NCBI GenBank assembly: GCA_026708325.1
Contig: JAPOVC010000021.1
Location: forward strand, 62,001 to 126,000
Direction of reading: 5' to 3'
DNA from: Anaerolineaceae bacterium
Lineage (GTDB): Bacteria > Chloroflexota > Anaerolineae > Aggregatilineales > Phototrophicaceae
Length of the DNA stretch: 64,000 nucleotides
Part shown: in pieces, positions 1-37,884 of the stretch
Layout of the letters: every line of letters begins with the position of its first letter
Position numbering within the stretch: position 1 is the first letter of the stretch
Program-made: the position numbers and the translations under genes
Notes under the pieces: model-generated
The model's database searches: none
Seen by the model: only the letters and a program-made list of their open reading frames with translations
Told to the model about the DNA's origin: nothing

Positions 1-2
1 GC

Positions 3-455
3 GAGACCGAGGCGCGCATCCTCGCGCCGCTGGTCGACGCCCTCGGCGAGGAGTTCGGCCGCGAGCGGGTGCTGGAGGTGCTGCGCGCGACGATAATCAG
101 GATCGCGCGCGAGCAGGGCGCGGCCATGGCCGAAGAGAGGGACGACCACGACCTTGACGCCTTCGCCGATACGCTGCCCGCCTGGCAGAAAGACGACGCG
201 ATGCGCATCGAGACCCTGCGCCAGGACGACGAGGCCTTCCACTTCAACGTCACGCGCTGCCGCTACGCCGAGATGTACCGCGCGCTGGGCATCCCGGATC
301 TGGGCGCGCTGCTCTCCTGCAACCGCGACTTCGCGCTCATCGAGGGCTTCAACCCGGACGTGCAGCTGGAGCGCACGCAGACGATCATGCAGGGCGCGAC
401 GCATTGTGATTTTCGGTATTCGTTGCCTGGTCAGGAAGAATCCGGCGCCTCCTGA
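3..455 (+). CDS. ATC hydrolase-like protein, 5' truncated by window edge
   Basis: The reading frame is open from base 3, so the true start lies before the window. The visible 150 residues resemble the C-terminal part of the L-2-amino-thiazoline-4-carboxylate hydrolase family (Pfam ATC_hydrolase). They show the family-like run [19 protein letters not shown], then a Cys-containing [12 protein letters not shown] segment and a closing [16 protein letters not shown]. Known members open a thiazoline ring, giving a cysteine-type product. Many family members are uncharacterised, so the substrate is open. It lies about 200 bp upstream of a NicX/M24 gene set on the same strand, which fits a ring-opening role in that island. 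Confidence 0.7.
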
Positions 456-594
456 AATCCTGAAGTCTTTCGTCGCTCCCACCACGCCGAACCCGCGTCT
501 TCGCTCCACTGAGACACCACCCTGAGGAGTGCGTACAGCCAGGCCTGCACTTCCCTAGTAACCGCCGCCACACCTGAGCCCCAACACCTCCCGT

Positions 595-624
595 TTGAAT
601 ACCGCGCGCGCTTCGGGTTATCTT
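595..624 (+). promoter_or_regulatory. Candidate sigma70-type promoter of the first NicX-like gene
   Basis: TTGAAT at 595-600 and TATCTT at 619-624 are separated by 18 bp. The predicted transcript starts near 631, leaving about 30 nt before the ATG at 661, with the ribosome site CAGGAGACATGAC just upstream of it. Found by eye only. Confidence 0.35.
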
Positions 625-660
625 ACGGGGCATACAGCGGATTTATTCAGGAGACATGAC

Positions 661-1719
661 ATGGTCGAATCGATGGCTCTGGACTATTCGGCAAGTACCC
701 AACTGGTCGACATGTTCCGCAGGCACCTGGAACTCTGCAAGGTGCATGCGGGCGAACACATCCTCATCCACACCGACCCGGGCAGCTACCCCCACTACGC
801 CGCCGCCTACATGGGCGCGGCCATCCAGCTCGGCGCCGACGTCTTCCAGATCGTGCACCCCAACCGCGAGGAGAAAGCCGTCATCGACGCCTGGAAACGC
901 GCCGACCTGGTCATCGACGTCTCCTCCGGCCCCCATGCCTACGGCCACATCATGCGCGAATCGATGGACAGCGGCACGCGCCTGCAGCGCATCGGCGTGG
1001 CCGTCAACACCATGCGCCGCCTCTTCCCCACCCAGGAACTGCGCGAGCGCGTTCTAGCCGGCAAGGCGCTCATGGCCAACGCCAAAACCATGCGCATCAC
1101 CTCGCCCGGCGGGACCGACCTCACCTTCCACAAGGAGGGGCGCGGGCCGATGGGCATCTACAGCGTCTCCGACGTCCCCGGCCGCTGGGACATCTGGCCG
1201 AGCGGGATGGTCTGCTGCGCGCCGGAAGAACACAAGGGCGGCGGCGTCCTGGTGCTGTCCCCGGGCGATTACATGCTGGTGCTCAACCAGTACATCAACG
1301 ACTACGTCTATCTGGAGATGAACGACGGCCGCATCACCGACATCAAGGGCGGCATGCAGGCCGAGTTGCTCAAGCGCTGGTTCGCCCAGTTCAATTCCGA
1401 AGACTCCTACCGCATCGCCCACGTCGGCTGGGGTTGCGAGAAGCGCGCCAACTGGCTGATCCCCGGCCAGGACAACGAGTGCATGTACGCCAACATGCAG
1501 ATAGCTTTCGGTTCCAACATCGGCATCTTCGAGGGCGCGACCACGCTCACCAATTCGCACATCGATTTCCCCTGCCTCAACAACAGCTACTGGGTGGATG
1601 ACATCCAGATCATGGAGAACGGCGAATTCGTGCTCGACGAGCTGCGCTACAAGGGCGACGTCGGCATCACCACGGAGACCGGCGGCACGCAGACCGGCCA
1701 CGGCTCCCGTCCGGGCTGA
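661..1719 (+). CDS. NicX-like (M29-superfamily) Fe(II) dioxygenase/aminopeptidase, paralogue 1
   Basis: A 352-residue member of the family that contains 2,5-dihydroxypyridine 5,6-dioxygenase (NicX) and M29 aminopeptidase-like proteins. NicX opens a dihydroxylated pyridine ring using Fe(II) held by two His and one Asp. Here the equivalent set is His254 (in RIAHVGWGC) and His300/Asp302 (in NSHIDF). The spacing between the two His is 46, against 53 in the two paralogues nearby, so a loop is shorter. The ATG at 661 is chosen because AGGAG precedes it; an upstream TTG at 595 has no site. Metal and substrate are inferred; dioxygenase or peptidase activity are both possible. Confidence 0.7.
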   Translation: MVESMALDYSASTQLVDMFRRHLELCKVHAGEHILIHTDPGSYPHYAAAYMGAAIQLGADVFQIVHPNREEKAVIDAWKRADLVIDVSSGPHAYGHIMRESMDSGTRLQRIGVAVNTMRRLFPTQELRERVLAGKALMANAKTMRITSPGGTDLTFHKEGRGPMGIYSVSDVPGRWDIWPSGMVCCAPEEHKGGGVLVLSPGDYMLVLNQYINDYVYLEMNDGRITDIKGGMQAELLKRWFAQFNSEDSYRIAHVGWGCEKRANWLIPGQDNECMYANMQIAFGSNIGIFEGATTLTNSHIDFPCLNNSYWVDDIQIMENGEFVLDELRYKGDVGITTETGGTQTGHGSRPG

Positions 1720-1731
1720 TCGGGACGAACA

Positions 1732-2862
1732 ATGGCCACCCATAGCCAGCCCTTTGACTACGCGGCGCGCTGCCAGCGGGTGCGGGAGAGCCTGCGCGCC
1801 GCCGGTATCGACGCCCTGCTCGTCGGCCCGTCCAGCGATCTCTTCTACCTGATCGGCCTGAACCGGCCGCAATCCGAGCGCCTGACCCACTTCATCCTGC
1901 CCGCCGCCGCAGACGAGAGCCCGCGCCTGATCCTGCCCTCCTTCGAGACGGCCCTGGCGGAGCCCCTGGCGCATTTCTTCGATCTCGTCCCATGGGAGGA
2001 GACCGAAAGCCCCTTCGAGCTTTTCGCCGCCTCCCTGCCCGCGGCCCGCACCGGGCAGCCGCTGCGTCTGGCCGTCGCCGACCAGATCTATGCCCACTTC
2101 CTCTATCGCCTGCAGGCCGCCGCGCCGGATGCTGAATTTCTGCCCGGCGGCAATCTGCTCAACCCCGTCCGCATGGTCAAGGAGGCGCAGGAACTGGAAT
2201 ACCTGACCCAGGCCGGCGCCGCCGCCGACCGCACCTACATGGCCCTGCTGGAATTGCCGCTCCTGGGCATGAGCGAGGCGGAGGTCAAGCAGCAACTGAT
2301 GGCGCTGCTGCCGCAACACGGTCACGACCCCGGCGCGCCCGCCGGCGCCATCGTCGGCGTCGGCGAGAACGGCGCGTCGCCGCATCACCACGTCGGACCG
2401 CGGCGTATCCAGGCCGGCGATGCCGTCGTCGTCGATTTCGGCAGCGGCGTGAACGGCTACTGGTCCGACATGACCCGCAGCTTCCACTTCGGCCCGCCTT
2501 CGGACGAATACCGCCGCGTCTACGACATCGTCAACGAGACCAACCAGGTGGCCTTCGAGGCCGTCCGGCCCGGCGTCACGGCGGAGTCGATCGATGCCGT
2601 TGCCCGCGCGCACATTATCGCCGCCGGTTATGAGGAAGGCATCCTGCACCGCACCGGCCACGGCCTCGGTTTCGATCTCCACGAGGCGCCCTACATCGTC
2701 CAGGGCGACACCACCGTCCTGCAGGAGGGGATGGTCTTCAGCATCGAGCCCGGCATCTACCTGAAGGGCCGCTTCGGCGTGCGCATCGAGGACATCGTCA
2801 CCGTGACGGCCGACGGCGCGCGCCGCTTCAACCTCAGCACGCACGACCTGCAGGTCCTGTGA
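1732..2862 (+). CDS. M24 family metallopeptidase (Xaa-Pro dipeptidase/creatinase-like), paralogue 1
   Basis: 376 residues with an N-terminal creatinase-type domain (about 1-150) and a C-terminal pita-bread domain. The five metal ligands are visible: Asp235 (VVDFG), Asp246 (WSDMTR), His310 (HRTGHGLG), Glu339 (SIEPG) and Glu353 (RIED). This predicts an active dinuclear metallohydrolase cleaving Xaa-Pro or other C-N bonds. It starts 12 bp after the NicX-like gene and its stop lies within a few bases of the next start, so the three genes form an operon. Substrate unknown; in this setting it may act on a small amide and not on a peptide. Confidence 0.85.
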   Translation: MATHSQPFDYAARCQRVRESLRAAGIDALLVGPSSDLFYLIGLNRPQSERLTHFILPAAADESPRLILPSFETALAEPLAHFFDLVPWEETESPFELFAASLPAARTGQPLRLAVADQIYAHFLYRLQAAAPDAEFLPGGNLLNPVRMVKEAQELEYLTQAGAAADRTYMALLELPLLGMSEAEVKQQLMALLPQHGHDPGAPAGAIVGVGENGASPHHHVGPRRIQAGDAVVVDFGSGVNGYWSDMTRSFHFGPPSDEYRRVYDIVNETNQVAFEAVRPGVTAESIDAVARAHIIAAGYEEGILHRTGHGLGFDLHEAPYIVQGDTTVLQEGMVFSIEPGIYLKGRFGVRIEDIVTVTADGARRFNLSTHDLQVL

Positions 2863-2864
2863 TC

Positions 2865-3953
2865 ATGGGCGCCATCGAACGCATCCTGGTGATGGGCGCC
2901 GGCCCCGGCGGGATGGCGGCCGCCGCCGCCCTCTCCCGCCGCGGTTACCACGTCCATCTCTACAACCGCAGCCCCGAACGGATCGCCGCCATCGTGGAGC
3001 AGGGTGGCGTGACCATCGAGGGCGACCTGGTCGGCGGGGACGAGGCCGGGGAGCTGGTGCCCCTGGCCCTCATCACCACCGATATCGCCGCCGCCATGGA
3101 GCAGGTCGAGCTGGTGCTCATCGCCGTGCCCGCCTACGGACAACGGGCGATGCTGGAGGCCTGCCTGCCTCATGTCCGCAGCGGCCAGATCATCCTGCTG
3201 CTGACCGGTTCGGCCGGCTCGCTGGAACTGGCGCCACTGCTGCGCCAGGCCGGGCACAGTCTCGACGACGTCCTGCTGGGGGAAACGGTCACCCTGCCGC
3301 AGTCGGCGCGCATGGTCGCGCCGGGCAAGCTGCGCATCCGCCTGCCCTCAAATTTGCGCTTCTCCGCCTTCCCCGGCCGCAATACCGGGCGGCTGCATGA
3401 ACGCCTGGGCGAAACGCTGCGCCTGATCCCCAAGCCCAACGTGCTGGACCCCGGCCTCAACAACCCCAACTTCATGATTCACCCCGCGCCGATGCTGCTG
3501 AACTACGCCGCCGTCGAGCGCCAGGACGGGTACCTGTCCATCATGAACGAAGGGATGACGCCCGGCGTGTTGCGCCTGCTGGACGCCGTCGACGAGGAGA
3601 AAATGGCCCTGCAGCGCGAACTGGGGCTGGACGTCGTCTATATCGACGACCTCTACCGCGAGACCGGCAGCGGCCCACATGTCTACCGCGTCCAGGGCGA
3701 GCCCTTCAACCTGCGCGACCGCATTTGGGACCGCTACGTCACCGAAGACGTGCCCTACGGCTCGGTGCTCTATTCCGCGCTGGGGCAACTGCTGGACGTG
3801 CCGACGCCCGTCAACGACAGCATCAACCACATCTTCTGCGTCACGGAAGAAGAGGACTACTGGGTCACGGGCCGCAACGCCGACGCGCTGGGCATCGCCG
3901 GCATGAATCGCGAGAGTCTCTTGCACTACCTGGAGACGGGCGAACGCCTTTAG
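2865..3953 (+). CDS. NAD(P)-dependent opine (octopine/nopaline) dehydrogenase-like protein
   Basis: 362 residues. The N-terminal Rossmann fold shows ILVMGAGPGGMAAAAAL; the C-terminal octopine-dehydrogenase domain contains NPNFMIHPAPMLLNYAAVE, whose Asn-His segment matches the opine dehydrogenase active site. Family members reversibly oxidise N-(carboxyalkyl)amino acids, releasing a 2-oxo acid and an amino acid. ATG at 2865 is preferred to a GTG at 2859 that overlaps the upstream stop. As last gene of the NicX1-M24 operon it could oxidise a secondary amine made by its neighbours. The family also has NAD-malate/ketopantoate-like relatives, so the substrate is not fixed. Confidence 0.75.
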   Translation: MGAIERILVMGAGPGGMAAAAALSRRGYHVHLYNRSPERIAAIVEQGGVTIEGDLVGGDEAGELVPLALITTDIAAAMEQVELVLIAVPAYGQRAMLEACLPHVRSGQIILLLTGSAGSLELAPLLRQAGHSLDDVLLGETVTLPQSARMVAPGKLRIRLPSNLRFSAFPGRNTGRLHERLGETLRLIPKPNVLDPGLNNPNFMIHPAPMLLNYAAVERQDGYLSIMNEGMTPGVLRLLDAVDEEKMALQRELGLDVVYIDDLYRETGSGPHVYRVQGEPFNLRDRIWDRYVTEDVPYGSVLYSALGQLLDVPTPVNDSINHIFCVTEEEDYWVTGRNADALGIAGMNRESLLHYLETGERL

Positions 3954-3956
3954 GGC

Positions 3957-3983
3957 GAGCGGCGACTGTGAGCGCCGTCGCTC
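3957..3983. terminator. Hairpin between convergent genes
   Basis: GAGCGGCG at 3957-3964 pairs with 3976-3983 (one G-T wobble) across an 11-nt loop, between the convergent ends of the opine dehydrogenase-like and second NicX-like genes. There is no clear T-run, so this is a weak candidate for a shared terminator. Confidence 0.3.
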
Positions 3984-5030
3984 TCAATCGAATGAAATGT
4001 GCGCCAGGTCCGGGTGGACGAAGCGCCCGTCTTCCGTGATCGGCACGCCATCCAGCGCGATGCTGTGCGCCAGGCCGTTGAAGTCGATGTGGGCGACGAC
4101 GTCGTTCGTGCCGTCGCCGATGTACCAGGAGGTATCGCGCCCGAAGGCGATCTGGAAGACGCCGGGGTAAGACTCCGCGTCGCCGATGCCGCCGGTCGGC
4201 CCCGCCATCCGGCCCCAGTCGGCGCGCTCGTCGCAGCCCCAGCCGACGTGCGAAATGTGATACGCGCGCTCGTCGCCCCAGCTGGCGAACCAGTTGCGCA
4301 GCAAATGCGCGTCCAGCCCTTCCCCCTCAATGCGGGTGATGATTCCCTCCTCAATGATGAGGTCGATGCGGGTGGTCGCGTAGCGCCGCATGCCGAGAAT
4401 GATGTCGCCGACGTCGATGACCAGGCGGCCGTTGCTGTTGGGGCGGTTGGCGCCGCCCACGACGACCGCCACCGACCAGTGGTCCCACTTGCCCGGCTGG
4501 TCCGCCGCGCCCCAGAGCCCGAAGGCCTTGCGCTCCGCCGTGTTCAGGACCAGGTCCGTCCCCGCCGGTGAGGTCGCCCGCAACTCTTTCGCCGCGGCCA
4601 GCAGGGCCTCGCAGCGCAGCACGCGGTCGCGCAGGGCGGGCAGCGGCCGCAGACGCGAGAGCACGTCCTCCGGCTGCGTCACCCGCAGGACGCGCACGCC
4701 CGCTTCCAGCGCGCTGACCCGCATGGGCCGGTAGATGCTGGTGCCGATCGATTCCAGGTCCACCACCAGATCGACGGCGTGCCAGATGTCCCACACCGGC
4801 CCGGAGAGGATGTCGCCGCCTTCCGTCGGCACTTCCAGCTGAAAGACATCCGCGCCCAGACCCTGCGCCGCTGCCATGGAGGCCTTGGCGTAGTGCATCG
4901 GCGTATGGTGATCGCAATAGACCATCACACGCTCGCCCTCGCGCAGTTGACAAAGCTCCAGCGTGTGCCGGAAGAGCGGGATCAGGTCCGTCAGCGCCCC
5001 GCCGGAATCGCGATACGTCCAGTGAAACAT
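3984..5030 (-). CDS. NicX-like (M29-superfamily) protein, paralogue 2
   Basis: 348 residues, same fold family as its two neighbours but on the opposite strand. The putative Fe(II) set is His261 (YHISHVGWGCD) and His314/Asp316 (VAHIDF), 53 residues apart as in characterised NicX. The ATG at 5030 has GGGAGG just upstream; a longer frame to 5102 would run into the divergent promoter region. It shares about 85 bp of intergenic DNA with paralogue 3, so the two are divergently transcribed. The N-terminus (MFHWTYRDSG) differs from the LDYSAST opening of the other two, suggesting a different substrate. Confidence 0.7.
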   Translation of the reverse strand: MFHWTYRDSGGALTDLIPLFRHTLELCQLREGERVMVYCDHHTPMHYAKASMAAAQGLGADVFQLEVPTEGGDILSGPVWDIWHAVDLVVDLESIGTSIYRPMRVSALEAGVRVLRVTQPEDVLSRLRPLPALRDRVLRCEALLAAAKELRATSPAGTDLVLNTAERKAFGLWGAADQPGKWDHWSVAVVVGGANRPNSNGRLVIDVGDIILGMRRYATTRIDLIIEEGIITRIEGEGLDAHLLRNWFASWGDERAYHISHVGWGCDERADWGRMAGPTGGIGDAESYPGVFQIAFGRDTSWYIGDGTNDVVAHIDFNGLAHSIALDGVPITEDGRFVHPDLAHISFD

Positions 5031-5051
5031 AAACCCTCCCCGCGCCACGTG

Positions 5052-5081
5052 TTGCGGCCAGCTCTTGTGCCTGAGTATAGT
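5052..5081 (+). promoter_or_regulatory. Candidate promoter of NicX-like paralogue 3 (divergent intergenic region)
   Basis: TTGCGG at 5052-5057 and TATAGT at 5076-5081 are 18 bp apart. An AGGAG ribosome site follows near 5103, nine bases before the GTG start at 5116. The minus-strand paralogue begins at 5030, so a regulator bound here could control both. Confidence 0.35.
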
Positions 5082-5115
5082 CGTTGCGCAGGAGCAGACC
5101 ACAGGAGCGGCAACC

Positions 5116-6138
5116 GTGAAAAAATTTCCGCTGGATTACAGCGCCTCCACCGAGTTGATCCCCCTCTTCAAGCGCTCGTTCGAACTCTGCAACCTGCACG
5201 CGGGGGAGACCCTGCTGATCTACAGCGACACGCATACCTCGCCGCATTACCCGGCCGCCGCCCTCGGCGCGGCCATCGACCTGGGTGTGGAGGCCTTCCA
5301 GGTCACCGTGCCCACCACCGTGCCGGAGAACGACAAGGGCATCATCGCCGACATCTGGGCCGGCGTCGACATGGTGATCGACCTCGTCAGCACCGTCGCC
5401 CACGCCTATTCGCTGCTCAACGCGGCGGCGCTCGAAAACGGCGGCCGCGTGCTCCGTTGCGGCCAGCCACAGGACGTCCTGATGCGCCTGGCGCCCGATC
5501 CCGTCATTCGCCGCCGCGCCCTGGCCGGCGCCGACCTGCTGCGCGGGGCGGAGACCATGCGCGTCACCTCCGCCATGGGCACGGACCTCACCTGCAACGT
5601 CAGGGACCGCGTCGTGCTGGGCCTGTACAGCCTCGCCGACGAGCCCGGCCGCTGGGACAACTGGCCCAGCGGTATGGTCACCGTCGGCCCGGATGAATAC
5701 AGCGCCAACGGCACCCTGGTGCTCGACGTCAACGACGTCATCCTGCGCCTGGGCCGCTACGTCACCTCGCCGGTGAAAATGACCATCCGCGATGGCCTGA
5801 TCGTCAAGATCGAGGGCGGCCTGGACGCGCGTCTGCTGGAGGACTGGTTCTCCGCCTTCAACGATGAGACAGCCTACCGCATCGCCCACATCGGCTGGGG
5901 CTGCGAGCACCGCGCCGACTGGAATCGCATGGGCGCTTACCTGATGGAAGGCGCCGTCCAGGACCAGGAAGCCTTCTACGGCAACATGCAGATCGCCTTC
6001 GGCGCCAACACGGCCATCTTCCAGGGCCAGAACGTCTCGAAGGCCCACATGGACTTCCCCTGCCGCAACAAGAGCATCTGGCTTGACGACTTGCAGGTCA
6101 TGGAAAAGGGGCAGTTCCTGATCCCCGAATTGCAATGA
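5116..6138 (+). CDS. NicX-like (M29-superfamily) Fe(II) dioxygenase/aminopeptidase, paralogue 3
   Basis: 340 residues, opening KKFPLDYSASTELIPLFKR much like paralogue 1. The ligand set is His258 (RIAHIGWGCEH) and His311/Asp313 (KAHMDF), with the exact 53-residue spacing reported for NicX of Pseudomonas putida (His265, His318, Asp320). The start is GTG at 5116, supported by AGGAG nine bases upstream. Its last codons overlap the ATG of the aminotransferase (ATGA), indicating translational coupling. Extradiol-like opening of a hydroxylated N-heterocycle is the best-supported hypothesis; peptidase activity is the alternative annotation. Confidence 0.72.
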   Translation: MKKFPLDYSASTELIPLFKRSFELCNLHAGETLLIYSDTHTSPHYPAAALGAAIDLGVEAFQVTVPTTVPENDKGIIADIWAGVDMVIDLVSTVAHAYSLLNAAALENGGRVLRCGQPQDVLMRLAPDPVIRRRALAGADLLRGAETMRVTSAMGTDLTCNVRDRVVLGLYSLADEPGRWDNWPSGMVTVGPDEYSANGTLVLDVNDVILRLGRYVTSPVKMTIRDGLIVKIEGGLDARLLEDWFSAFNDETAYRIAHIGWGCEHRADWNRMGAYLMEGAVQDQEAFYGNMQIAFGANTAIFQGQNVSKAHMDFPCRNKSIWLDDLQVMEKGQFLIPELQ

Positions 6139-7325
6139 CGGAGGGCGCAGCGCCCCTGCCCTACCGCCGCCTCAACCCGCCGGAGCGCACCCTCCTCGGC
6201 CCGGACCTCAGCAACGCCTCGCCGCGCGCGCGACAGGGGCTCATCGGCGTGCTCGAAGGCGCCAACGACCCCAGTTTCCTCGCCGTGCTGGACGAGGCCA
6301 TCGCGCGCCTGCGCCAGCTCTGGCGCACGGAGAACGAGGACACTTACCTGGTCCCCGGCTCCGAGGAAACCGCCCTGGAGGCTGCCCTGCTGAACGCCCT
6401 GCAGCCAGGCGAGACCGCCGTCGTCGCCATCAGCGGCTTCTTCGGCGAGCGCCTGGCCGACGCGGCCGAACGCTGCGGCGCCCAGGTCGTCCGCGTCGTC
6501 GCGCCGGCGGGCGAAGCCGTCTCTCTGGAAGCGTTGCGGGAGGCTCTCGGCGCCCGGCCGACGCGCCTGCTGGCAGTCCTGCACGGCGAGGGCTCGACCG
6601 GCGTCCAGCAGCCATTGACCGGCCTTGGCGAACTGGCTCGCGAGCACGACGCGCTGCTGCTGGTCGATTCGCGCTGGACGATCAGCGCCGTCGACGCGCC
6701 CCACGACGAAGCGGGCATCGACATCGGCGTCGCCGGCAGCCAGAAAGCGATCAGCGCCTACCCCGGCCTGGGCCTGATCACCTTCAGCGCGCGCGCCGCC
6801 GCCGTCCACAATGCCCGCCAACAGCCGGTCGCCAGCCCCTCGCTGGACCTGGCGCAACTGCGCCGCTTCCGCGAGGAAGAACGCGCCGCCCAGACCATGC
6901 CGGCGCCGATCGTCTACGCCCTCACCGAGTTGCTGCAGCTGATTTCCGAGCAGGGCATGGACTATCGCGCGGACCGCATGGTCAACCGCCGCGATGCCCT
7001 GGTCGCCGCCTTCGCGGAGCTGGGCCTCTCCGTGTATGCGCAGCCCGGTTTCCGCCTGCCGACAGTGACGGCCTTCAAGGTGCCGCAGGGCGTGGACGCC
7101 GACGCCATCCGCCGGGCCCTGCTGACCCCCTACCGCATCGACATCGGCGGCGGCCTGGGCGACCTGCGCGGCCGCGTCTGGCGCGTCGGCATGCTGGGCC
7201 ATTCCGCCCAGCCGACCTTCCTGCTGGCGCTGGTGACCCTGATGGAAATCTTGCTGGAGGAGGCCGGGCAGCCGATTCGCGAACGCGGCGCGGCCGCGCG
7301 CACCCTGCTGGCTCAACTGGACTGA
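6135..7325 (+). CDS. Class V aminotransferase (PLP-dependent)
   Basis: 396 residues of the alanine-glyoxylate/serine-pyruvate aminotransferase type (fold type I). The PLP-binding Lys is Lys204 in GVAGSQKAISAYPG, preceded by LLLVDSRWTISAVD, where the Asp contacts the PLP ring nitrogen; the family phosphate-binding loop lies near residue 75 (PGSEETALEAA). Pyridoxamine-pyruvate aminotransferase, which degrades a pyridine vitamer, belongs to this family and would fit a neighbour of NicX-like genes, though that assignment is only inference. It overlaps the preceding dioxygenase-like gene by four bases and is followed 27 bp later by the enolase-superfamily gene. Confidence 0.85.
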   Translation: MTEGAAPLPYRRLNPPERTLLGPDLSNASPRARQGLIGVLEGANDPSFLAVLDEAIARLRQLWRTENEDTYLVPGSEETALEAALLNALQPGETAVVAISGFFGERLADAAERCGAQVVRVVAPAGEAVSLEALREALGARPTRLLAVLHGEGSTGVQQPLTGLGELAREHDALLLVDSRWTISAVDAPHDEAGIDIGVAGSQKAISAYPGLGLITFSARAAAVHNARQQPVASPSLDLAQLRRFREEERAAQTMPAPIVYALTELLQLISEQGMDYRADRMVNRRDALVAAFAELGLSVYAQPGFRLPTVTAFKVPQGVDADAIRRALLTPYRIDIGGGLGDLRGRVWRVGMLGHSAQPTFLLALVTLMEILLEEAGQPIRERGAAARTLLAQLD

Positions 7326-7351
7326 TCCGACACAGAGGGGAATGGGAATTC

Positions 7352-8482: not shown

Positions 8483-8515
8483 GTCCCGCCGGATATCCCG
8501 CGAAAGGAGCAGCAG

Positions 8516-9520: not shown

Positions 9521-9529
9521 CGCGGAGAC

Positions 9530-10855: not shown

Positions 10856-10885
10856 CCTGTTTTGAATGAAGAGAGGAGATTCTGT

Positions 10886-12094
10886 ATGTCCCATCGCGAA
10901 CCCAACTATGCCATGTTCCCGACCGCGGAATATCTGGACCGCGTCGAGCGCGCGCGCGAACGAATGGACGCCCATGGCATCGACGCCATTATCATTACCG
11001 CCAAGGAAAATGGCATCTACTTCTCCGGCATCCGCACCATCGGCTGGAATTCCAAACACCGCCCGCTGGGCATCATCGTCCCGCGCGACAACAGCAAGCC
11101 CGTCATCAGCGTCGTCGCCGAGAGTCTCTTCGACGTCGCTTACCAGTCCTCCTGGATCGAGGAGGTGCGCCCCTGGGGCGGCTGGCGCATCGCCGACGCC
11201 GCGCCGGACCCGCTGACGGCCATCCATGACGCCTGCGAGCAGCTGGGCGTGGCCGACGGTACCATCGGCCTCGAGCTCGGCTACGGCCAGCGCATCGCCA
11301 TGTCGCAAACGGACTTCGAAGACCTCACCGGCCGCTTCACGAAGGCCACCTTCGTCGACGTCGGCCCCCTGATGTGGGAACTGCGCATGATCAAGTCCGC
11401 GCGCGAGGTGGAGAAGCTGAGAAAGGCCGCCGACGCGACGACCCGCGCCTACGAAAAGGCCTTCGCCGAACTGCGCCCCGGCATGACCGAGCGCGAGCTG
11501 GGCAGTCTGCTGCTCTCCGAGATGGTGCTGCAGACCGGCGAAATGCCGGGCTTCATCATGGTGCGCTCCGGCATCGAGAAATACGGCATGGTCAACGTCG
11601 AGCCCTTCGAACGCCCCATTCAGCCCGGCGAACTAATCGTCGTCGACGCCGGCGCCAATTATCACTACTACTGGTCGGACTACATGCGCATGGCCTCCAT
11701 GGGCGAGCCCAGCGCGGAGCAGCGCCGCTTCTTCGATGCCAACCTGGCCGCGCAAAGGGCCGGCGTCGCAGCCGTCAAACCGGGCAACACCATGAACGAC
11801 GTCTTCTCCGCCTGTTACGACGTGCTGATGGAACACGACATGAAAGAGCACGTCCCCGGCCTGGAGCGCGTCGGCCACGGCCTCGGTCTCGACGTCCACG
11901 AACCGCCCTCGATCGCCAAAGGCAGCGATACGGTCATCGAACCGGGCATGGTGCTCACCGTGGAGCCGATCTTTTGGGACCGGCCGGACCACGTCGTCGG
12001 CAATTTCGCGATCGAGGATATCCTGCTGGTGACCGAAAACGGCAGCGAAACCCTCAGTGGCTTTCCCATAGAACTCTACATTGCGGACTGCTGA
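10886..12094 (+). CDS. M24 family metallopeptidase-like protein, paralogue 2
   Basis: 402 residues with a creatinase-type N-domain and pita-bread C-domain. The metal set D-D-H-E-E is visible in VVDAGANYHYYWSDY, RVGHGLGLDVHE, LTVEP and FAIED. It differs clearly from the other two copies: it has GMVLTVEPIFWD where they have MVFSIEPGIYL, and an ectoine-hydrolase/DoeA-like character in its N-terminal NGIYFSGIRTIGW segment. The start is the ATG at 10886, with AGGAG seven bases upstream; a longer frame from 10862 lacks a site. The stop TGA shares its last base with the ATG of the next M24 gene, so the two are coupled. Confidence 0.85.
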   Translation: MSHREPNYAMFPTAEYLDRVERARERMDAHGIDAIIITAKENGIYFSGIRTIGWNSKHRPLGIIVPRDNSKPVISVVAESLFDVAYQSSWIEEVRPWGGWRIADAAPDPLTAIHDACEQLGVADGTIGLELGYGQRIAMSQTDFEDLTGRFTKATFVDVGPLMWELRMIKSAREVEKLRKAADATTRAYEKAFAELRPGMTERELGSLLLSEMVLQTGEMPGFIMVRSGIEKYGMVNVEPFERPIQPGELIVVDAGANYHYYWSDYMRMASMGEPSAEQRRFFDANLAAQRAGVAAVKPGNTMNDVFSACYDVLMEHDMKEHVPGLERVGHGLGLDVHEPPSIAKGSDTVIEPGMVLTVEPIFWDRPDHVVGNFAIEDILLVTENGSETLSGFPIELYIADC

Positions 12095-13197
12095 TGAACG
12101 ACTACGCAGAGTTCGCGGACCGCGCCCGACGTGCCCAGGCCGCCATGGCCGCGGCCGATTGTGACTGGCTTTTCGTCTCCCACTCGACCGACCTGCTCTA
12201 CCTGATCGGCTTCACCAAGCGGCCCAGCGAGCGCCTGGCCCTCCTGCTTCTGCCGCGCGAGGGGCGCGCCACCATGGTCGTCCCCGGCTTCGAGGTGCAG
12301 ATCTTCCAGCCCTACGCCAGTTTCTTCGACGTCATCGGCTGGGAAGAGACCGAAGACCCGGTGGCGAAGGTCGCCGACGTCGTCGGCGCCGGCGCCGGGC
12401 AGACCATCGCCATCGCCGACCACCTGCACACCGTCTTCACCCTGAGGCTGCAGGCCGCCCTGGCCGGGGCGCGCTACATGGAAGGCAACCGTATCCTGGC
12501 CAGCATCCGCATGATCAAGACCGCCGCCGAAATCGACCATCTGCGGGGAGCCGCCGCCAGGACCGAGGACGCCCTCGCGTCCCTCTTCGCCGAACCCGTC
12601 AGCGGCAAGTCGGAACGCGAAGTGCTGCGCTTCCTGCACAATGGCCTGACGGAACGCGGCCTCGAGCTCAGCGGCGGGGGCATCGTCGGCGCGGGGCCGC
12701 ACAGCGCCTCGCCGCACCACAAGACGGGCGAGAAACGCCTGGCCGACGGCGACGCCCTGGTCATCGATTTCGGCGGCGGCTGGAATGGCTACCGCTCGGA
12801 CTTGACGCGCAGCTTCCACGTCGGCGAGCCGGAGGAGGAATTCCGCCTCATCTACCGCATCACGCAGGAGGCGCAGCAACTGGCCTTCGAGGCGACCCGG
12901 CCCGGGATAACCACGGAGCAGATCGATTCGGTCGCGCGCGACTACATCACGGCACAGGGCTACGGGCCCGCCTTCATACACCGCACCGGGCACGGCGTCG
13001 GCATGGACGGCCACGAATACCCCTACCTGATTCAGGGGGATACGACCGTCGTCGAAGAGGGGATGGTCTTCAGCATCGAGCCCGGCATCTACCTGGCGGG
13101 CAAGTACGGCGTGCGCATCGAGGACGTCGTCGCCGTGACGGCGGACGGCGCCGAACGACTGAATCACTACCCGCGCGACCTGCAGATTGTGGACTGA
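12094..13197 (+). CDS. M24 family metallopeptidase (Xaa-Pro dipeptidase-like), paralogue 3
   Basis: 367 residues, closely similar in layout to paralogue 1 at 1732-2862: both share DLxYLIG, the FxxPFASFFDVxxWEET-like N-domain run and a C-domain ending GVRIEDVV. Metal ligands are visible in VIDFGGGWNGYRSDLTRS, HRTGHGVG, SIEPG and RIED. The ATG at 12094 overlaps the preceding stop by one base (TGATG). Paralogues 1 and 3 probably arose by duplication inside the island. An intracellular aminopeptidase or amidohydrolase role is predicted; substrate unknown. Confidence 0.85.
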   Translation: MNDYAEFADRARRAQAAMAAADCDWLFVSHSTDLLYLIGFTKRPSERLALLLLPREGRATMVVPGFEVQIFQPYASFFDVIGWEETEDPVAKVADVVGAGAGQTIAIADHLHTVFTLRLQAALAGARYMEGNRILASIRMIKTAAEIDHLRGAAARTEDALASLFAEPVSGKSEREVLRFLHNGLTERGLELSGGGIVGAGPHSASPHHKTGEKRLADGDALVIDFGGGWNGYRSDLTRSFHVGEPEEEFRLIYRITQEAQQLAFEATRPGITTEQIDSVARDYITAQGYGPAFIHRTGHGVGMDGHEYPYLIQGDTTVVEEGMVFSIEPGIYLAGKYGVRIEDVVAVTADGAERLNHYPRDLQIVD

Positions 13198-13218
13198 AGC
13201 GGGCTGCGAGCGTCGCGC

Positions 13219-14220
13219 CTAAACCAGGCGGGGCATCACCTCGTCGGCGAAGCGGCGAATGGCGTCTTCGGAGTCGCTGATGTCCGGCGCGTTGACGAGG
13301 ATGCCGATTTCATTGATCCCCTGCCCGATCGCCCGCTGCAGCTGGTCGGCGACTTCGTCCGCGCTGCCGATGGCCATCATGCGCCGGACCAGATCGTCGG
13401 AGACAAGGTGAGCGGCGCTTTCGCTGCCCCCTTCGCCGTAGACCGCCTTCAACTCGTCACGGAAACGATCCCCCAGGCGCAGGGCCTCAAAAACGCCCGG
13501 CGGCGCCCCGGCCAGGACGTGCGCGGCCATGGGGCGCGAGTGATCGAGCCAGCGCGCGGCGTCTTCGGTGATGTGGCAGGTGATCCAGATCATGCGGCCG
13601 ATGTCTTCAAGACGGCGACCGCTCCTCTCCGCCCCTGCCGCCACCTGCCCCAGCGACCAGGCCAGCGCCTCTTCATCCAGCAGGGCGCCGATGACCGCGC
13701 AATCGGCCAGTTCGCCGGCCACCTGCAGCACCAGCGGGCCGCGCGCGGCCAGATAGAGCGGCACGTCCGGGTGCGGCGCCATCTCCAGTTCGACGCCATC
13801 GGCGACGAAGCAGTCGCCGCGATGGTTCAGCGTGTCGCCGCGCAGCAGACGACGACACAGGACCAGGGCCTCGCGGCAGTGGGCGGCCGCCCGCTCCTGT
13901 TCGCCCCCGAGCGGCAGGATGAGTTCGCGGCGGTTGCCCGCGCCATAGCCGAGGGCCACCCGACCGGGGCAATGGTCGTCCAGTGTGGCGGCCGCGCGGG
14001 CGACCTGCACCGGATGGCGCGTGAAGGGGTTGGCGACGCCGATTACCAGTTCGATGCGTTCGGTCTGGCTGGCGACGACGGCCAGGGTCACGAAGGGGTC
14101 CGGGAAGAAGGTCTGGTCGGGAATCCAGGCCGCGTCGTAGCCGAGGCGCTCCCCCAGTTGCACGAGCCGCGTGAAGTTGGTGATCGGCGCCTTGGGCTTG
14201 GCGCCAAAGATGAATTTCAT
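13219..14220 (-). CDS. LLM-class flavin/F420 oxidoreductase, paralogue 2
   Basis: 333 residues, paralogue of the gene at 8516: it shares RLGERLGYxxAWIPDQTF, GVANPFTRHPVQVARAAATL and GYGAGNRRELILPLG. Luciferase-like barrel, probably using F420 or FMN. Its ATG overlaps the stop of the ABC permease gene (ATGA), so it is the last gene of the importer operon and the imported compound is probably its substrate or precursor. The two copies differ in the mid-region (about residues 120-220), where substrate contacts usually lie in this family. Confidence 0.85.
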   Translation of the reverse strand: MKFIFGAKPKAPITNFTRLVQLGERLGYDAAWIPDQTFFPDPFVTLAVVASQTERIELVIGVANPFTRHPVQVARAAATLDDHCPGRVALGYGAGNRRELILPLGGEQERAAAHCREALVLCRRLLRGDTLNHRGDCFVADGVELEMAPHPDVPLYLAARGPLVLQVAGELADCAVIGALLDEEALAWSLGQVAAGAERSGRRLEDIGRMIWITCHITEDAARWLDHSRPMAAHVLAGAPPGVFEALRLGDRFRDELKAVYGEGGSESAAHLVSDDLVRRMMAIGSADEVADQLQRAIGQGINEIGILVNAPDISDSEDAIRRFADEVMPRLV

Positions 14221-15185
14221 GCCTGTTCCGTCCCCCGCAGTCTTGGGTCAAGCGCGTCGCGCAGTCCGTCGCCGAGCAGGTTGATGCACATCACGGTGAT
14301 GAATATCGCCAGGCCGGGGAAGACGGTCATCCACCATTCGCCCGAGCGGATGTAATTGCGGCCCAGGCTGAGCATCGCGCCCCATTCCGGGTGCGGGATT
14401 TGCGCGCCCAGCCCGAGAAAGCTCAAACCGGCGGCGATCTGAATCGCGCTGGCGACGCGCAGGGTTCCCACCACGATCACGGAGGAGACCACATTCGGCA
14501 GAATGTGTTGCCACATGATGTGCCAGTGCGAGGCGCCCATCGCGCGCGAACTTTCGACGTAGATCTTGTTCTTCTCCACCAGGGTATCGCCGCGCACCAG
14601 GCGCGCGAAGGCCGGCATGCTGGCGATGCTCACCGCCAGCATCGCGTTCTGCAGCCCCGCTCCCAGGATCGTCACCACGACGATGGCCATCAGAATCGCC
14701 GGCAGCGTCAGCATGATGTCGAGAAAACGGCTGATGACGTCATCCACGCCGCCGCCGAAATAGCCGGCCATCAGGCCCAGCACCAGACCGATGCTGATCG
14801 CCGCGCTGATGGAGACCACCCCGACGCTGATGGTCGTGCGCCCGCCATGCAAGACGCGCGAAAACACGTCGCGCCGCAGGTCGTCCGTGCCCATCCAGTG
14901 CTGCGCGTTGGGGGACACGAGCAAATCGGCGCTGTCCTTGCTCTGTTCCAGGGGGTCAAAGGGGGAAATGGAATCCGCCAGCATTGTCAGCGCGATGATG
15001 ATCAGCAAAATGGCGCCGCCCAGCAGGGCCGCCTTGTCCTGACGCAACTGACGGCGGATGAAATACCACTGGTTCTGCGACTGCCCGGCGCCCGCGTTGT
15101 TTTCCGGCAGGGTCTTGATGGCCGCCGGCCCGGCAGCCGGCTGTCCTGCGGAGGGCGGTCCCGCGGCCGGGCTGCGCTCAGGCAT
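14217..15185 (-). CDS. Peptide/nickel-type ABC transporter permease (DppC-like)
   Basis: 322 residues, inner-membrane permease with six predicted helices and the binding-protein-dependent transport motif around ESSRAMGASHWHIMWQHILPN (the EAA loop that docks the ATPase). It has a DppC-type N-terminal extension with a Pro/Gly/Ala-rich cytoplasmic tail of about 45 residues. It overlaps the DppB-like gene upstream by eight bases and the LLM gene downstream by four, so the genes are tightly coupled. No DppD/DppF ATPase genes occur in this window; they must be supplied from elsewhere. Confidence 0.9.
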   Translation of the reverse strand: MPERSPAAGPPSAGQPAAGPAAIKTLPENNAGAGQSQNQWYFIRRQLRQDKAALLGGAILLIIIALTMLADSISPFDPLEQSKDSADLLVSPNAQHWMGTDDLRRDVFSRVLHGGRTTISVGVVSISAAISIGLVLGLMAGYFGGGVDDVISRFLDIMLTLPAILMAIVVVTILGAGLQNAMLAVSIASMPAFARLVRGDTLVEKNKIYVESSRAMGASHWHIMWQHILPNVVSSVIVVGTLRVASAIQIAAGLSFLGLGAQIPHPEWGAMLSLGRNYIRSGEWWMTVFPGLAIFITVMCINLLGDGLRDALDPRLRGTEQA

Positions 15186-16170
15186 AGCGGATGCGCGGGT
15201 CCACGGCGGTGTACAGCATGTCCACGCCGAAATTGATGAGCACGAAAATCGTTGCCGAAAAGAGCGTCACGCCCTGCACCAGCGGGAAATCGCGATTGAT
15301 GATCGCCGTGACGACCTCGCGCCCCAGGCCGGGGAAGACGAACACCGTCTCCACGATCACCGCGCCGCCCAGCAGATAGCCGAACTGCAGGCCGAGGATC
15401 GTCAACACGGGGATGAAGGCGTTGCGCAGCACGTGGGCCGTCAAGACCCAGGCTTCGCGCACGCCCTTGGCGCGCGCCGTGCGCACGTAGTCCTCCCCCA
15501 GCACGTTCAACATGCTGGAGCGGGTCAGGCGCGCGATGATGGCCACCGTCGGCGCCGCCAGCGTGATCGTGGGCAATATCAGGGTGATAAAGCCGCGATC
15601 GCCGACGAAGGGCCGCACCCAGCGCAACTCCACGCCGAAGACGTACATCAGCATCAGGCCGAGCCAGAAGGGCGGGATCGACACGCCCACCAGCGCGCCC
15701 AGCATCGTCAGATAGTCGTGGATCGTCTCGCGTCGAATCGCGGCGATGATGCCGGCCAGAATCCCGACCGGCAGCGCCAGCAGCATCGCGGCCACCGTCA
15801 ACTTGAGAGTTGCGGGGAAGCGGTCCGCGATGATGTCGATCACCTGGGCGCGCTTGAAAATGGAGCGGCCGAAATCGCCGCGCAGGATGCCGCGGCGCGT
15901 GCCGTAGGAATCCGGGACTTCATCGCCGTCGGTATCCACCCGCACGTAATCGTTGCCCATCAGCCAGAAGAGGTATTGTTCCGGCAGCGGGCGGTCCAGC
16001 CCCAGGTTGCGGCGCATCTCCTCGATGGCGCCGGGGCCGGACTTCACCTCATGCAGCATGATCGCCACGGGATCGCCCGGCACCAGGTGAATCATGGCGA
16101 AGATCAACACGCTGACGCCCAGCAGGATCAGAATCGAAGCCAGCAAGCGACGGATGAGGTAGGCGGTCAC
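15178..16170 (-). CDS. Peptide/nickel-type ABC transporter permease (DppB-like)
   Basis: 330 residues, starting GTG, with the DppB hallmark N-terminus RRLLASILILLGVSVLIFAM and the EAA-loop region YVRTARAKGVREAWVLTAHV. The large loop after the first helix has an extra segment, DTDGDEVPDSYG, shaped like a calcium-binding Asp-rich loop, just before the usual GDFGRSIF. A similar loop occurs in the binding protein of the same operon. Forms the translocation pore with the DppC-like partner encoded downstream. Confidence 0.9.
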   Translation of the reverse strand: MTAYLIRRLLASILILLGVSVLIFAMIHLVPGDPVAIMLHEVKSGPGAIEEMRRNLGLDRPLPEQYLFWLMGNDYVRVDTDGDEVPDSYGTRRGILRGDFGRSIFKRAQVIDIIADRFPATLKLTVAAMLLALPVGILAGIIAAIRRETIHDYLTMLGALVGVSIPPFWLGLMLMYVFGVELRWVRPFVGDRGFITLILPTITLAAPTVAIIARLTRSSMLNVLGEDYVRTARAKGVREAWVLTAHVLRNAFIPVLTILGLQFGYLLGGAVIVETVFVFPGLGREVVTAIINRDFPLVQGVTLFSATIFVLINFGVDMLYTAVDPRIRYA

Positions 16171-16215
16171 GCCTCAGGGCTCCTGTTTCGCCCGGCGAGG
16201 AAGCGGAGTAACGGG

Positions 16216-16250
16216 CCCGACCCGGGCGCCGCGCGGGCGTCCGGGCCGGG
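16216..16250 (-). other. GC-rich hairpin between binding-protein and permease genes
   Basis: Bases 16216-16230 pair with 16236-16250, with one mismatch and one wobble around a 5-nt loop, in the 108-bp gap after the substrate-binding protein gene. There is no T-run. Hairpins here commonly protect or attenuate the transcript so that more binding protein than permease is made; that role is inference. Confidence 0.45.
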
Positions 16251-16278
16251 ATTGAATCAGAGTGAAGGCGCTACTCTC

Positions 16279-17877
16279 CTATGCGTCAGAGAGCCAGGTG
16301 TCATAGAAGTCGAAGAAGCCCTGTGCGTTGGTGCGGAAGTTCTGCACGCGCGAGTTGACCACGAAGGCGTTCTCGATCACGTAGAAGGGGATGTAGGGCA
16401 TCTGGTCCAGCATGATCTCCTGAATCCGGTGGTAGATCGCCGCCCGCGCCTCCAGGTCCAGCGTGCGCCGTCCCTCCTCGATGAGACCGTCCACCTCCGC
16501 GTTGTTGAAGCGCGCGGTATTCCAGGCGGCGTCAATCGACGACGAGTGCGCGATGATGTTGAACACGTCCGGGTCCGTGGCGGGGAAGAGCATGCCGGAG
16601 AGTTCCCACTTGCCGGCGCGCATATCGGCCAGGTAAGCGCCGATTTCTTCCGTCTCCACCGTGATTTCGATGCCCAGTTGCGTCAGATCATTGACGACGA
16701 TCTGGCCATACTGGTCAAAGGGGAAGCCCGGGCTGATGCCGTAGGTGATGCTGAAGGCCTGGCCGTCCCTGTCGAGGATGCCATCGCCGTCGGCATCGCC
16801 CCAGCCGGCTTCCGCCAGCAGCGACGCCGCCATTTCGGGATCGTAGCCGGGCCACTGGTCCATGCCCTCGGTCCAGTAGCCGAAAAGGCCGGGCGTCAGG
16901 ATGGCCTGCGGCACGGCGCCGATGCCACCAAACACCTCGTCCAGAATGCGCTGGCGGTCCACCGCCCAGGCGACGGCGCGGCGGGTGGCCGCGTCATCGA
17001 AGGGGAAGAGTTCCGTATTCAGCACCAGGATGCGCGGCACGCCGGTGCGCGCCGCCGTGGGCACGTAGAAGTCCGGATCGTCCTGGAAGAAAGGCAGCTG
17101 ACTCGCCAGCGGGCTGTAGATCACGTCGACCTCGAAGGTCTCCACCAGCGCCATGCGGGTGCTGTCCTCGCCGACGTGCAGGGCGACCAGCTCTTCCAGG
17201 TAGGCGGGGCCCTGATGATCGTAGTAGTCCGGCGCCCAGTTGTAGTCCTCGTTGCGCGCCATCACCACTTCTTCATCCGGCATGGTGCTGACGAAGCGGA
17301 AGGGACCCGTGCCCACGGGGTTCAGGCCGTAGTCCGCGCCATGCTCCATAACGGCCGCCGGCGAAACGGGCGCCAGGCCGATTTGCGTCAGTGAATCGAG
17401 GTAGGGGGCGAAGGGCTCCTTGAGGGTCATCACGACGGTGTAGTCATCCGGCGTATCGATGGTCTCCACCGGGCCGACGATCGCGGCCGCCCAGGGAGAA
17501 GCCAGTTCGGGATCGCTGATGCGCTCGAAGGAGAAGCGTACCGCCTCCGCGTTGAAGGGCGTGCCATCATGGAAGGTGACGCCCTGGCGCAGGTTCAGGG
17601 TGATGACCGTGCCATCGTCGCTGAAGGAGAAGGACTCCGCCAGCCCCGGCCCGATGGCGCCGGTTGTCGGGTGTTTGCGCAGCAGCGGATCATAGATGAA
17701 CTGCATGATGTTGCGGCCGAAGGTGTTGGTGTTGGCCGCCGGGTCCAGAACGCCCCATTCCGAGGAGAAGACCACCGACAGGGAGCCACCGGACATCGGC
17801 TCCTGCGCCCCGACCACCCCCACGAACAGGAGCAACAACGTGCTCAGTAACAACACAAAACGAGTGCGACTTCTCAT
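16279..17877 (-). CDS. ABC transporter substrate-binding protein, family 5 (peptide/opine type)
   Basis: 532 residues with a clear signal peptide (RTRFVLLLSTLLLLFVGVVGAQ) and the SBP_bac_5 fold: a YDPLLRKHP-like segment, LRQGVTFHDGTPFNAEAVRFS, and late AIYHRIQEIMLDQMPYIPFY. It would capture peptides, opines or related amides outside the membrane and hand them to the permeases encoded next. GGAGGAAAG precedes the ATG. An unusual DADGDGILDRDG loop near residue 365 looks like a calcium-binding motif. First gene of the operon that also contains the LLM paralogue 2. Confidence 0.9.
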   Translation of the reverse strand: MRSRTRFVLLLSTLLLLFVGVVGAQEPMSGGSLSVVFSSEWGVLDPAANTNTFGRNIMQFIYDPLLRKHPTTGAIGPGLAESFSFSDDGTVITLNLRQGVTFHDGTPFNAEAVRFSFERISDPELASPWAAAIVGPVETIDTPDDYTVVMTLKEPFAPYLDSLTQIGLAPVSPAAVMEHGADYGLNPVGTGPFRFVSTMPDEEVVMARNEDYNWAPDYYDHQGPAYLEELVALHVGEDSTRMALVETFEVDVIYSPLASQLPFFQDDPDFYVPTAARTGVPRILVLNTELFPFDDAATRRAVAWAVDRQRILDEVFGGIGAVPQAILTPGLFGYWTEGMDQWPGYDPEMAASLLAEAGWGDADGDGILDRDGQAFSITYGISPGFPFDQYGQIVVNDLTQLGIEITVETEEIGAYLADMRAGKWELSGMLFPATDPDVFNIIAHSSSIDAAWNTARFNNAEVDGLIEEGRRTLDLEARAAIYHRIQEIMLDQMPYIPFYVIENAFVVNSRVQNFRTNAQGFFDFYDTWLSDA

Positions 17878-36917: not shown

Positions 36918-36918
36918 G

Positions 36919-37797: not shown

Positions 37798-37884
37798 GCC
37801 AGTCCGGTACAGGTAGCGAAAGGAGTCGCCCGCGACAAGACTGCATCATCACAGATCACCTTCTTTATTGGCAGGGAGAAAACC

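What the first reader, a model, noticed from the sequence alone, without database searches (positions are those of the whole stretch)
3..17877. Uncharacterised catabolic island with three NicX-like and three M24 paralogues
Seen: three NicX/M29-family genes with His...HxD ligand sets (two with the 53-residue spacing of NicX), three M24 hydrolases with intact metal sites, an ATC-hydrolase-like protein, an opine dehydrogenase, a PLP aminotransferase, an enolase-superfamily enzyme, two LLM oxidoreductases, a MATE exporter and a family 5 ABC importer, joined by 1-8 bp overlaps. Known: NicX opens 2,5-dihydroxypyridine; ATC hydrolase opens a thiazoline. Inference: a pathway that imports and opens an N-containing ring or amide, not matching a pathway I know.
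Basis: partly seen in the sequence, partly recalled or inferred. Interest (0 to 1): 0.8.

Follow-up and report, generated by a model that had tools for sequence, protein, structure and literature searches.

The report
Importer-linked catabolic island with NicX-like trio
A 17-kilobase set of 15 genes, shared and apparently swapped between bacteria related to marine-sponge symbionts, looks like a machine for importing and taking apart an unidentified nitrogen-containing molecule, and its three central enzymes belong to a branch whose metal site lies between that of a known ring-opening enzyme and that of a known protein-cutting enzyme.

Summary
In detail: every gene named is present. All three "NicX-like" proteins match NicX structures by sequence (E 4e-39 to 4e-54), and the NicX3 model fits NicX at Z 45 against 22 for M29 aminopeptidases. 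The 15-gene island is syntenic in three other Chloroflexota genomes, and a reduced version lies in a cold-seep Chloroflexota. Between two genera it is far more alike (74-93%) than gatB or cysS (57%, 63%), which points to horizontal transfer. The trio keeps NicX's His-His-Asp triad, but not Glu177 or His105 (nor, in two, His189), which bind 2,5-dihydroxypyridine, nor Ser302 or Arg293, both essential in NicX. At position 293 they carry Glu, as M29 proteins do. They form a sister subfamily of NicX. Within 10 kb, 21 of 24 loci of that subfamily carry a peptide-type ABC permease; 0 of 47 Arg293-type loci do. 2,5-DHP cleavage is therefore unlikely. Best guess: import and dismantling of a peptide-, opine- or lactam-like nitrogen compound by C-N cleavage plus F420- and NAD-dependent steps. 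Oxidative opening of another heterocycle is not excluded. The ATC-hydrolase gene is conserved beside the island only within the genus. The substrate is unknown.

The parts
1..455 (+). ATC-hydrolase-family protein (3' part; starts 66 bp upstream of the window). Flank gene, conserved beside the island only in the same genus
   Evidence: PF14196 143 bits; L001:13934-14455; found in G001 and G002, not in G013
661..1719 (+). NicX1, NicX-like protein, E293/A302 type
   Evidence: PDB 7cn3 E 3.7e-39; 57% orthologue in cold-seep G101
1732..2862 (+). M24a, creatinase/prolidase-type M24 hydrolase, five metal ligands intact
   Evidence: PF00557 198 bits; ligands
2859..3953 (+). Opine-dehydrogenase-type NAD(P) oxidoreductase
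   Evidence: PF02317 93 bits; PDB 1bg6 CENDH E 5e-40
3984..5030 (-). NicX2, NicX-like protein
   Evidence: PDB 7cn3 E 1.6e-44
5052..5081 (+). Conserved promoter-like element TTGCGG-18-TATAGT in the divergent NicX2/NicX3 spacer
   Evidence: Aligned and conserved in four genomes; the consensus scan gave no excess over shuffles
5116..6138 (+). NicX3, NicX-like protein
   Evidence: PDB 7cn3 E 4.4e-54; AF2 pLDDT 90.9; Z 45.4 to NicX
6135..7325 (+). Class V aminotransferase, alanine/serine/ureidoglycine:glyoxylate type
   Evidence: PF00266; PDB 1vjo E 8e-77
7352..8482 (+). Enolase-superfamily (muconate cycloisomerase-like) enzyme; sixth-strand Lys replaced by Tyr
   Evidence: TIGR02534 299 bits, below cut-off 335; PDB 3i4k, 1nu5 alignments
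8516..9520 (+). LLM1, Mer-like, probably F420-dependent oxidoreductase
   Evidence: PF00296 193 bits; best PDB hits are Mer; CofE in genome
9530..10855 (+). MATE exporter; least conserved gene of the island
   Evidence: PF01554; 74% identity, dN/dS 0.28 against G013
10862..12094 (+). M24b, M24 hydrolase (prolidase/ectoine-hydrolase-like)
   Evidence: PF00557 164 bits; 54% orthologue in G101
12094..13197 (+). M24c, M24 hydrolase
   Evidence: PF00557 197 bits; ligands
13219..14220 (-). LLM2, luciferase-like oxidoreductase
   Evidence: PF00296 204 bits
14217..15185 (-). Dpp/Opp-type ABC permease C
   Evidence: Conserved in four genomes; 48% in G101
15178..16170 (-). Dpp/Opp-type ABC permease B
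   Evidence: Conserved in four genomes; 49% in G101
16279..17877 (-). Family 5 solute-binding protein
   Evidence: PF00496 276 bits; PDB hits include AgaA 6hlx, YliB, AppA, NikA

Best explanation
This is a horizontally exchanged catabolic island, found in Chloroflexota that include apparent sponge associates, that imports and dismantles one class of small N-containing molecules. SHOWN: gene content, conservation, a core present even in a distant cold-seep relative (two NicX-like genes, M24b, opine dehydrogenase, MLE-like enzyme, SBP and two permeases), transfer-like divergence, and membership of the trio in a sister subfamily of NicX with a hybrid set of metal-site residues. INFERRED: the family 5 ABC importer brings in a peptide-, opine- or lactam-like compound. 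The NicX-like proteins, as mononuclear metal enzymes (His260, His313, Asp315, perhaps Glu287 in NicX3 numbering), and the M24 hydrolases cleave C-N bonds, more likely by hydrolysis than by dioxygenation. The opine dehydrogenase releases or remodels a secondary amine, the F420-type LLM enzymes and the MLE-like enzyme do redox and isomerisation steps, and the AGT-type aminotransferase recovers nitrogen.
For: Syntenic island in four genomes of two genera; reduced island in G101 with MLE 65%, ODH 59%, NicX1 57%, M24b 54%, permeases 48-49%, plus creatininase and M20 amidohydrolase genes, i.e. further C-N hydrolases. Purifying selection on every gene. Island 74-93% identical and dS 0.49-0.78 across genera, while gatB is 57% with saturated synonymous sites and cysS 63% with dS 1.15. 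Trio: Glu at NicX position 293, Ala at 302, Leu/Ile at 177, Tyr at 105; the corresponding Glu274 of CgnB is a zinc ligand (PMC10070186; the correspondence to CgnB is read from the shared motif order, not from a computed alignment). Peptide-type permeases in 21 of 24 E293-type loci against 0 of 47 R293-type loci. SBP relatives include AgaA. CofE supports an F420 pool.
Against: No substrate or activity evidence. The Glu250-, Glu316-, His345- and Tyr352-type residues of M29 hydrolases are missing, and the Glu316-to-His swap is shared with NicX, which favours iron. The 24 E293-type loci are not independent: 11 are near-identical Caldilineaceae, and by my count about five or six lineages remain. 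The MATE exporter and the F420 enzymes also fit biosynthesis. Sponge origin is inferred from isolate names and was not verified for most records or for the window's own genome.
Confidence: 0.42

Rival explanations
1. One reading: the trio are Fe(II) extradiol-type dioxygenases that open an N-heterocycle other than 2,5-DHP, LLM enzymes prepare it, and M24 (and ATC-type) hydrolases cut the resulting amides.
For: Closest solved relative is NicX by sequence and fold; the 2-His-1-Asp triad is invariant in the trio; the Glu316-to-His change specific to NicX is shared.
Against: Ser302 and Arg293, each essential in NicX, are Ala and Glu; Glu177 and His105 are lost in all three and His189 in two. The trio is outside the true-NicX clade. 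The LLM pair looks F420-type, so it probably does hydride transfer, not oxygenation. The reduced island in a cold-seep MAG keeps the NicX-like pair.
Confidence: 0.3
2. Genuine peptide utilisation island: the trio are aminopeptidases and the M24 proteins are prolidases acting on imported Xaa-Pro peptides.
For: M24 proteins are prolidase-like; Dpp-type importer; the four island genomes lack an M29 gene that 50 of 61 genomes searched have; L051 and L063 have NicX-like genes near what I read as hydroxyproline epimerase and P5C dehydrogenase genes.
Against: Four of six M29 ligand or catalytic positions are replaced; opine dehydrogenase, MLE and LLM genes are not needed for peptides.
Confidence: 0.12
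3. The NicX-like proteins are substrate- or peptide-binding partners, not catalysts, as CgnB and CgnE are in crocagin biosynthesis, and present the imported compound to the M24, opine-dehydrogenase or LLM enzymes.
For: The model aligns to CgnE and CgnB at Z 14.1 and 12.9; CgnB/CgnE may have arisen from M29-type ancestors with repeated duplication and metal-site loss (PMC10070186); one of three tandem NicX-like copies in Caldilineaceae loci has lost the metal Asp (HxG).
Against: All three island copies keep the His-His-Asp triad, and dN/dS is 0.07-0.15 against G013.
Confidence: 0.1
4. Opine-type metallophore system: opine dehydrogenase and aminotransferase build it, MATE exports it, the NikA-like ABC system re-imports it.
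For: Opine dehydrogenase, MATE exporter and an SBP with NikA and metallophore-binding relatives.
Against: No nicotianamine-synthase-like gene was seen. In G101 the core lacks the exporter and aminotransferase but keeps M24, MLE and NicX-like genes. Three M24 hydrolases and the NicX-like trio have no role in such systems that I know of.
Confidence: 0.06

Closest known systems
NicX, 2,5-dihydroxypyridine 5,6-dioxygenase, Pseudomonas putida KT2440 (PDB 7cn3, 7cup)
   Same: Fold (Z 45.4, rmsd 1.5 over 328 residues), length, about 33-34% structural identity, His265/His318/Asp320 triad
   Different: Ser302, Arg293, Glu177 and His105 replaced in all three (His189 in two); separate clade; different gene neighbourhood
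M29 aminopeptidases AmpS, PepS, AmpT (1zjc, 4ics, 2ayi)
   Same: Fold (Z about 22), HxD pair, and the Glu at NicX position 293
   Different: Glu250-, Glu316-, His345- and Tyr352-type residues missing; Pfam M29 cut-off not reached
CgnB/CgnE of crocagin biosynthesis (6zsv, 6zsu)
   Same: Related fold (Z 12.9-14.1); tandem paralogues; Glu274 of CgnB probably matches the Glu of the trio
   Different: CgnB has a dinuclear zinc site and binds a RiPP precursor; the trio keeps a His-His-Asp triad and sits beside an importer
Nicotinate/2,5-DHP catabolic clusters
   Same: NicX-fold enzyme next to amide hydrolases
   Different: None of the island proteins matches the maleamate-type amidohydrolases or nicotinate hydroxylases of those clusters (make-up of those clusters from memory)
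Opine catabolic loci (AgaA-type SBP, CENDH-type dehydrogenase)
   Same: SBP second-best PDB hit is AgaA; dehydrogenase best hit is CENDH
   Different: NicX-like, MLE, LLM and M24 genes are not part of opine loci that I know

Membership tests
2,5-DHP dioxygenase (NicX) | NicX fold | tested here: met
   Z 45.4 to 7cn3
2,5-DHP dioxygenase (NicX) | Fe ligands His265, His318, Asp320 | tested here: met
   All three proteins
2,5-DHP dioxygenase (NicX) | Fe ligand Ser302 and Asp320-positioning Arg293 (both essential by mutation, PMC7910607) | tested here: not met
   Ala and Glu in all three
2,5-DHP dioxygenase (NicX) | DHP-binding Glu177, His189, His105 | tested here: not met
   177: I/L/L; 189: I/H/N; 105: Y in NicX1/2/3
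2,5-DHP dioxygenase (NicX) | Position inside the true-NicX clade | tested here: not met
   Sister group; true-NicX clade support 1.0
2,5-DHP dioxygenase (NicX) | O2-dependent ring cleavage | not testable with these tools
   Needs an enzyme assay
M29 aminopeptidase | Pfam PF02073 above cut-off | tested here: not met
   22.1 bits for NicX3 against 27; none for NicX1 and NicX2
M29 aminopeptidase | Dinuclear ligand set Glu250/Glu316/His345/His376/Asp378 and Tyr352 | tested here: not met
   Only the HxD pair kept (M29 numbering from memory, alignment computed)
M24 (pita-bread) hydrolase | Asp-Asp-His-Glu-Glu metal site | tested here: met
   All three; which substrate is not testable
Muconate cycloisomerase | TIGR02534 cut-off and the two catalytic Lys | tested here: not met
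   299 against 335 bits; sixth-strand Lys is Tyr
Opine dehydrogenase | Octopine_DH domain with the conserved His | tested here: met
   93 bits; NFMIHPAP aligned with NAVMHPLP of CENDH
F420-dependent LLM | F420 biosynthesis in the genome | tested here: met
   PF01996 hits 236 and 201 bits; cofactor binding itself untested
ATC hydrolase pathway | ATC gene conserved with the island | tested here: not met
   Beside the island in genus g1 only

The most novel reading that the evidence does not exclude
The E293-type NicX-like proteins are an uncharacterised enzyme class, a mononuclear His-His-Asp(-Glu) site on the M29 fold, that opens a nitrogen-containing ring or lactam. The island is a mobile symbiont pathway for a host- or symbiont-made alkaloid, opine or lactam whose degradation has not been described.
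Probability: 0.3. Interest if true: 0.72.

Novelty: new variant of a known kind. Interest (0 to 1): 0.5.

Why it matters
NicX is, as far as I found, the only structurally solved member of this fold shown to cleave a pyridine ring, and its authors found no structural relatives of the full-length protein (PMC7910607). The subfamily found here carries NicX's histidine triad together with the M29-type Glu, so it makes testable how a dinuclear peptidase site turned into a mononuclear oxygenase site. The island also gives a concrete, transferable candidate for what sponge-associated Chloroflexota eat: Bayer et al. (PMC6306507) found only incomplete aromatic-degradation pathways in these bacteria.

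Tried and rejected
Homarine catabolism as a template: literature search gave nothing usable. Riboflavin and 4-hydroxypyridine pathways: checked, no NicX-like enzyme named in their pathways. F420 check with CofD alone: rejected as a marker because its control also rings in E. coli; replaced by CofE. cysS dS against G001 is an alignment artefact (dN larger than dS) and not used. The promoter and terminator scan found no excess over shuffles. No tRNA lies at the island's edges. A wider phylum search with NicX1 gave no further island; the best hit in another genome was 34%. Relatives of the cold-seep genome gave only 38-39% single hits. The Ircinia microbiome paper was not held. M29 sequences first extracted were partly out of frame; only L172, L175 and L177 were used for the ligand mapping, and the set was re-extracted for the tree. 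The crocagin-like binding role was kept as a rival.
Full report
OBSERVATION. The three NicX-like proteins match solved NicX chains at E 4.4e-54 (NicX3), 1.6e-44 (NicX2) and 3.7e-39 (NicX1). Only NicX3 touches the Pfam M29 model, below its cut-off (22.1 against 27 bits). His-to-HxD spacing is 53, 53 and 46 residues (NicX3, NicX2, NicX1). The genome has just these three copies.

ANATOMY. The island has four transcription blocks: NicX1-M24a-ODH (+); NicX2 (-); NicX3-AT-MLE-LLM1-MATE-M24b-M24c (+); SBP-PermB-PermC-LLM2 (-). Overlaps are 1-8 bp and other gaps 6-108 bp. In the 85-bp divergent spacer between NicX2 and NicX3, a TTGCGG-18-TATAGT element is conserved in the four genomes aligned, with small changes; a consensus scan gave no statistical support, so its role is inference. 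No ABC ATPase gene was seen, so the permeases would need shared ATPases (inference).

CONSERVATION. The full 15-gene set, in the same order and orientation, is in two same-genus genomes and in one of another genus, G013. In G013 the flanks differ, with restriction and methyltransferase-type genes (my reading of the ORFs), and the ATC gene was not found beside the island. A fifth genome, CSMAG_1213 (the CSMAG series comes from the cold-seep catalogue, PMC10491686), has a reduced island: NicX1 57%, a second NicX-like 44%, SBP 37%, permeases 48-49%, M24b 54%, ODH 59%, MLE 65%, plus GntR/FCD, creatininase, AroM and M20 genes. The shared core is thus two NicX-like genes, M24b, ODH, MLE, SBP and two permeases. 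A motif-based scan of 84,980 species genomes found no further full island among the 77 loci kept; divergent ones could be missed.

SELECTION AND TRANSFER. All 15 genes show dN/dS of 0.05-0.28, highest for MATE. Across the two genera the island is 74-93% identical with dS 0.49-0.78, while gatB is 57% with synonymous sites saturated (pS 0.76) and cysS 63% with dS 1.15. With different flanks this points to horizontal transfer. Only two vertical markers were compared.

WHAT THE TRIO IS. NicX's tested residues are His265, Ser302, His318 and Asp320 (iron), Arg293 (needed for iron), Glu177, His189 and His105 (substrate) (PMC7910607). Across 107 aligned family members, the Pseudomonas- and Bacillus-type proteins carry Arg293 and Ser302; the trio carries Glu293, Ala302, Leu/Ile177 and Tyr105, with His189 only in NicX2. 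The triad His-His-Asp is kept. Aligned with true M29 proteins, position 293 lies in the M29 DE(K/N) motif and, by residue count to the following conserved Gly, on its Glu; position 265 falls on M29 Glu316, and the M29 Glu250 and His345 positions are non-ligand residues. CgnB, an M29-fold protein, uses Glu274 of the corresponding motif as a zinc ligand (PMC10070186; correspondence read from motif order, not aligned here). So the trio has a hybrid site: NicX's His, M29's Glu. The tree puts the island copies and the cold-seep pair in one clade (0.951) inside a larger E293 group, sister to true NicX (support 1.0), with M29 far outside. AlphaFold2 of NicX3 (pLDDT 90.9) aligns to NicX at Z 45.4 and rmsd 1.5, to M29 enzymes at Z 21-22.5, and to CgnE/CgnB at Z 14.1/12.9.

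NEIGHBOURHOOD TEST. Among loci of at least 10 kb, 21 of 24 with E293-type copies carry a Dpp/Opp-type permease, against 0 of 47 with R293-type copies (Fisher p 4e-15). The loci are not independent (11 are near-identical Caldilineaceae), so the p value overstates the case, but by my count the pattern recurs in five or six lineages including Alphaproteobacteria. This suggests that the subfamily differs from true NicX in function as well as in sequence.

OTHER ENZYMES. ODH is closest to N-(1-D-carboxylethyl)-L-norvaline dehydrogenase. The aminotransferase is closest to alanine/serine/ureidoglycine:glyoxylate enzymes. The MLE-like protein lacks the sixth-strand Lys. LLM1 is Mer-like, and the genome has two F420 ligase genes, so the LLM pair probably uses F420 and transfers hydride rather than oxygen (inference). 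The SBP's PDB relatives include AgaA, YliB, AppA and NikA.

MECHANISM. I commit to import of a peptide-, opine- or lactam-like compound, C-N bond cleavage by the NicX-like and M24 enzymes, and redox and nitrogen recovery by ODH, LLM, MLE and AT (0.42). Oxidative opening of another N-heterocycle follows (0.30), then peptide utilisation, a binding-partner role, and a metallophore. All functional steps are inferred. DHP cleavage itself is unlikely.

HABITAT. Isolate names suggest sponges (RHO, COS), and Rhopaloeides odorabile and Coscinoderma matthewsi were sampled in PMC8163846, but I could not verify records.

VERDICT. Real, conserved and unassigned; interpretation partly supported; new variant of a known kind, interest 0.5.

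Noticed in passing
L049-L062, e.g. L052:7772-10999: Caldilineaceae MAGs carry a separate tandem array of three NicX-like genes followed by two ABC permeases; the middle copy has lost the metal Asp (HxG), as CgnE-type copies lose metal residues.
   Followed up: partly
L051:5640-11053 and L063:7057-11047: NicX-like genes of an Acidimicrobiia MAG and of bacterium OM1 sit near genes that read as hydroxyproline epimerase/proline racemase and P5C-type aldehyde dehydrogenase.
   Followed up: no
G000, G001, G002, G013 (whole genomes): The four island-bearing genomes have no M29 aminopeptidase, while 50 of 61 genomes searched (relatives and the window's own) do.
   Followed up: no
L064:4560-11797 and L067:4585-11811: Alphaproteobacterial NicX-like genes follow a Dpp-type ABC operon with a LacI-type regulator and are followed by an uncharacterised roughly 250-aa protein of the same kind in both.
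   Followed up: no
window 35970-40772: Sugar-type ABC importer genes followed by a sulfatase-like gene, possibly for sulfated polysaccharide use.
   Followed up: no
L044:4836-9599: A 1587-aa protein with many fibronectin-III-like repeats near the island in G013, the kind of eukaryote-like repeat protein reported from sponge symbionts.
   Followed up: no
G000:C24:108013-110178: CofD-like and CofE genes lie together, with a second CofE at C28:12426; supports F420 synthesis.
   Followed up: partly
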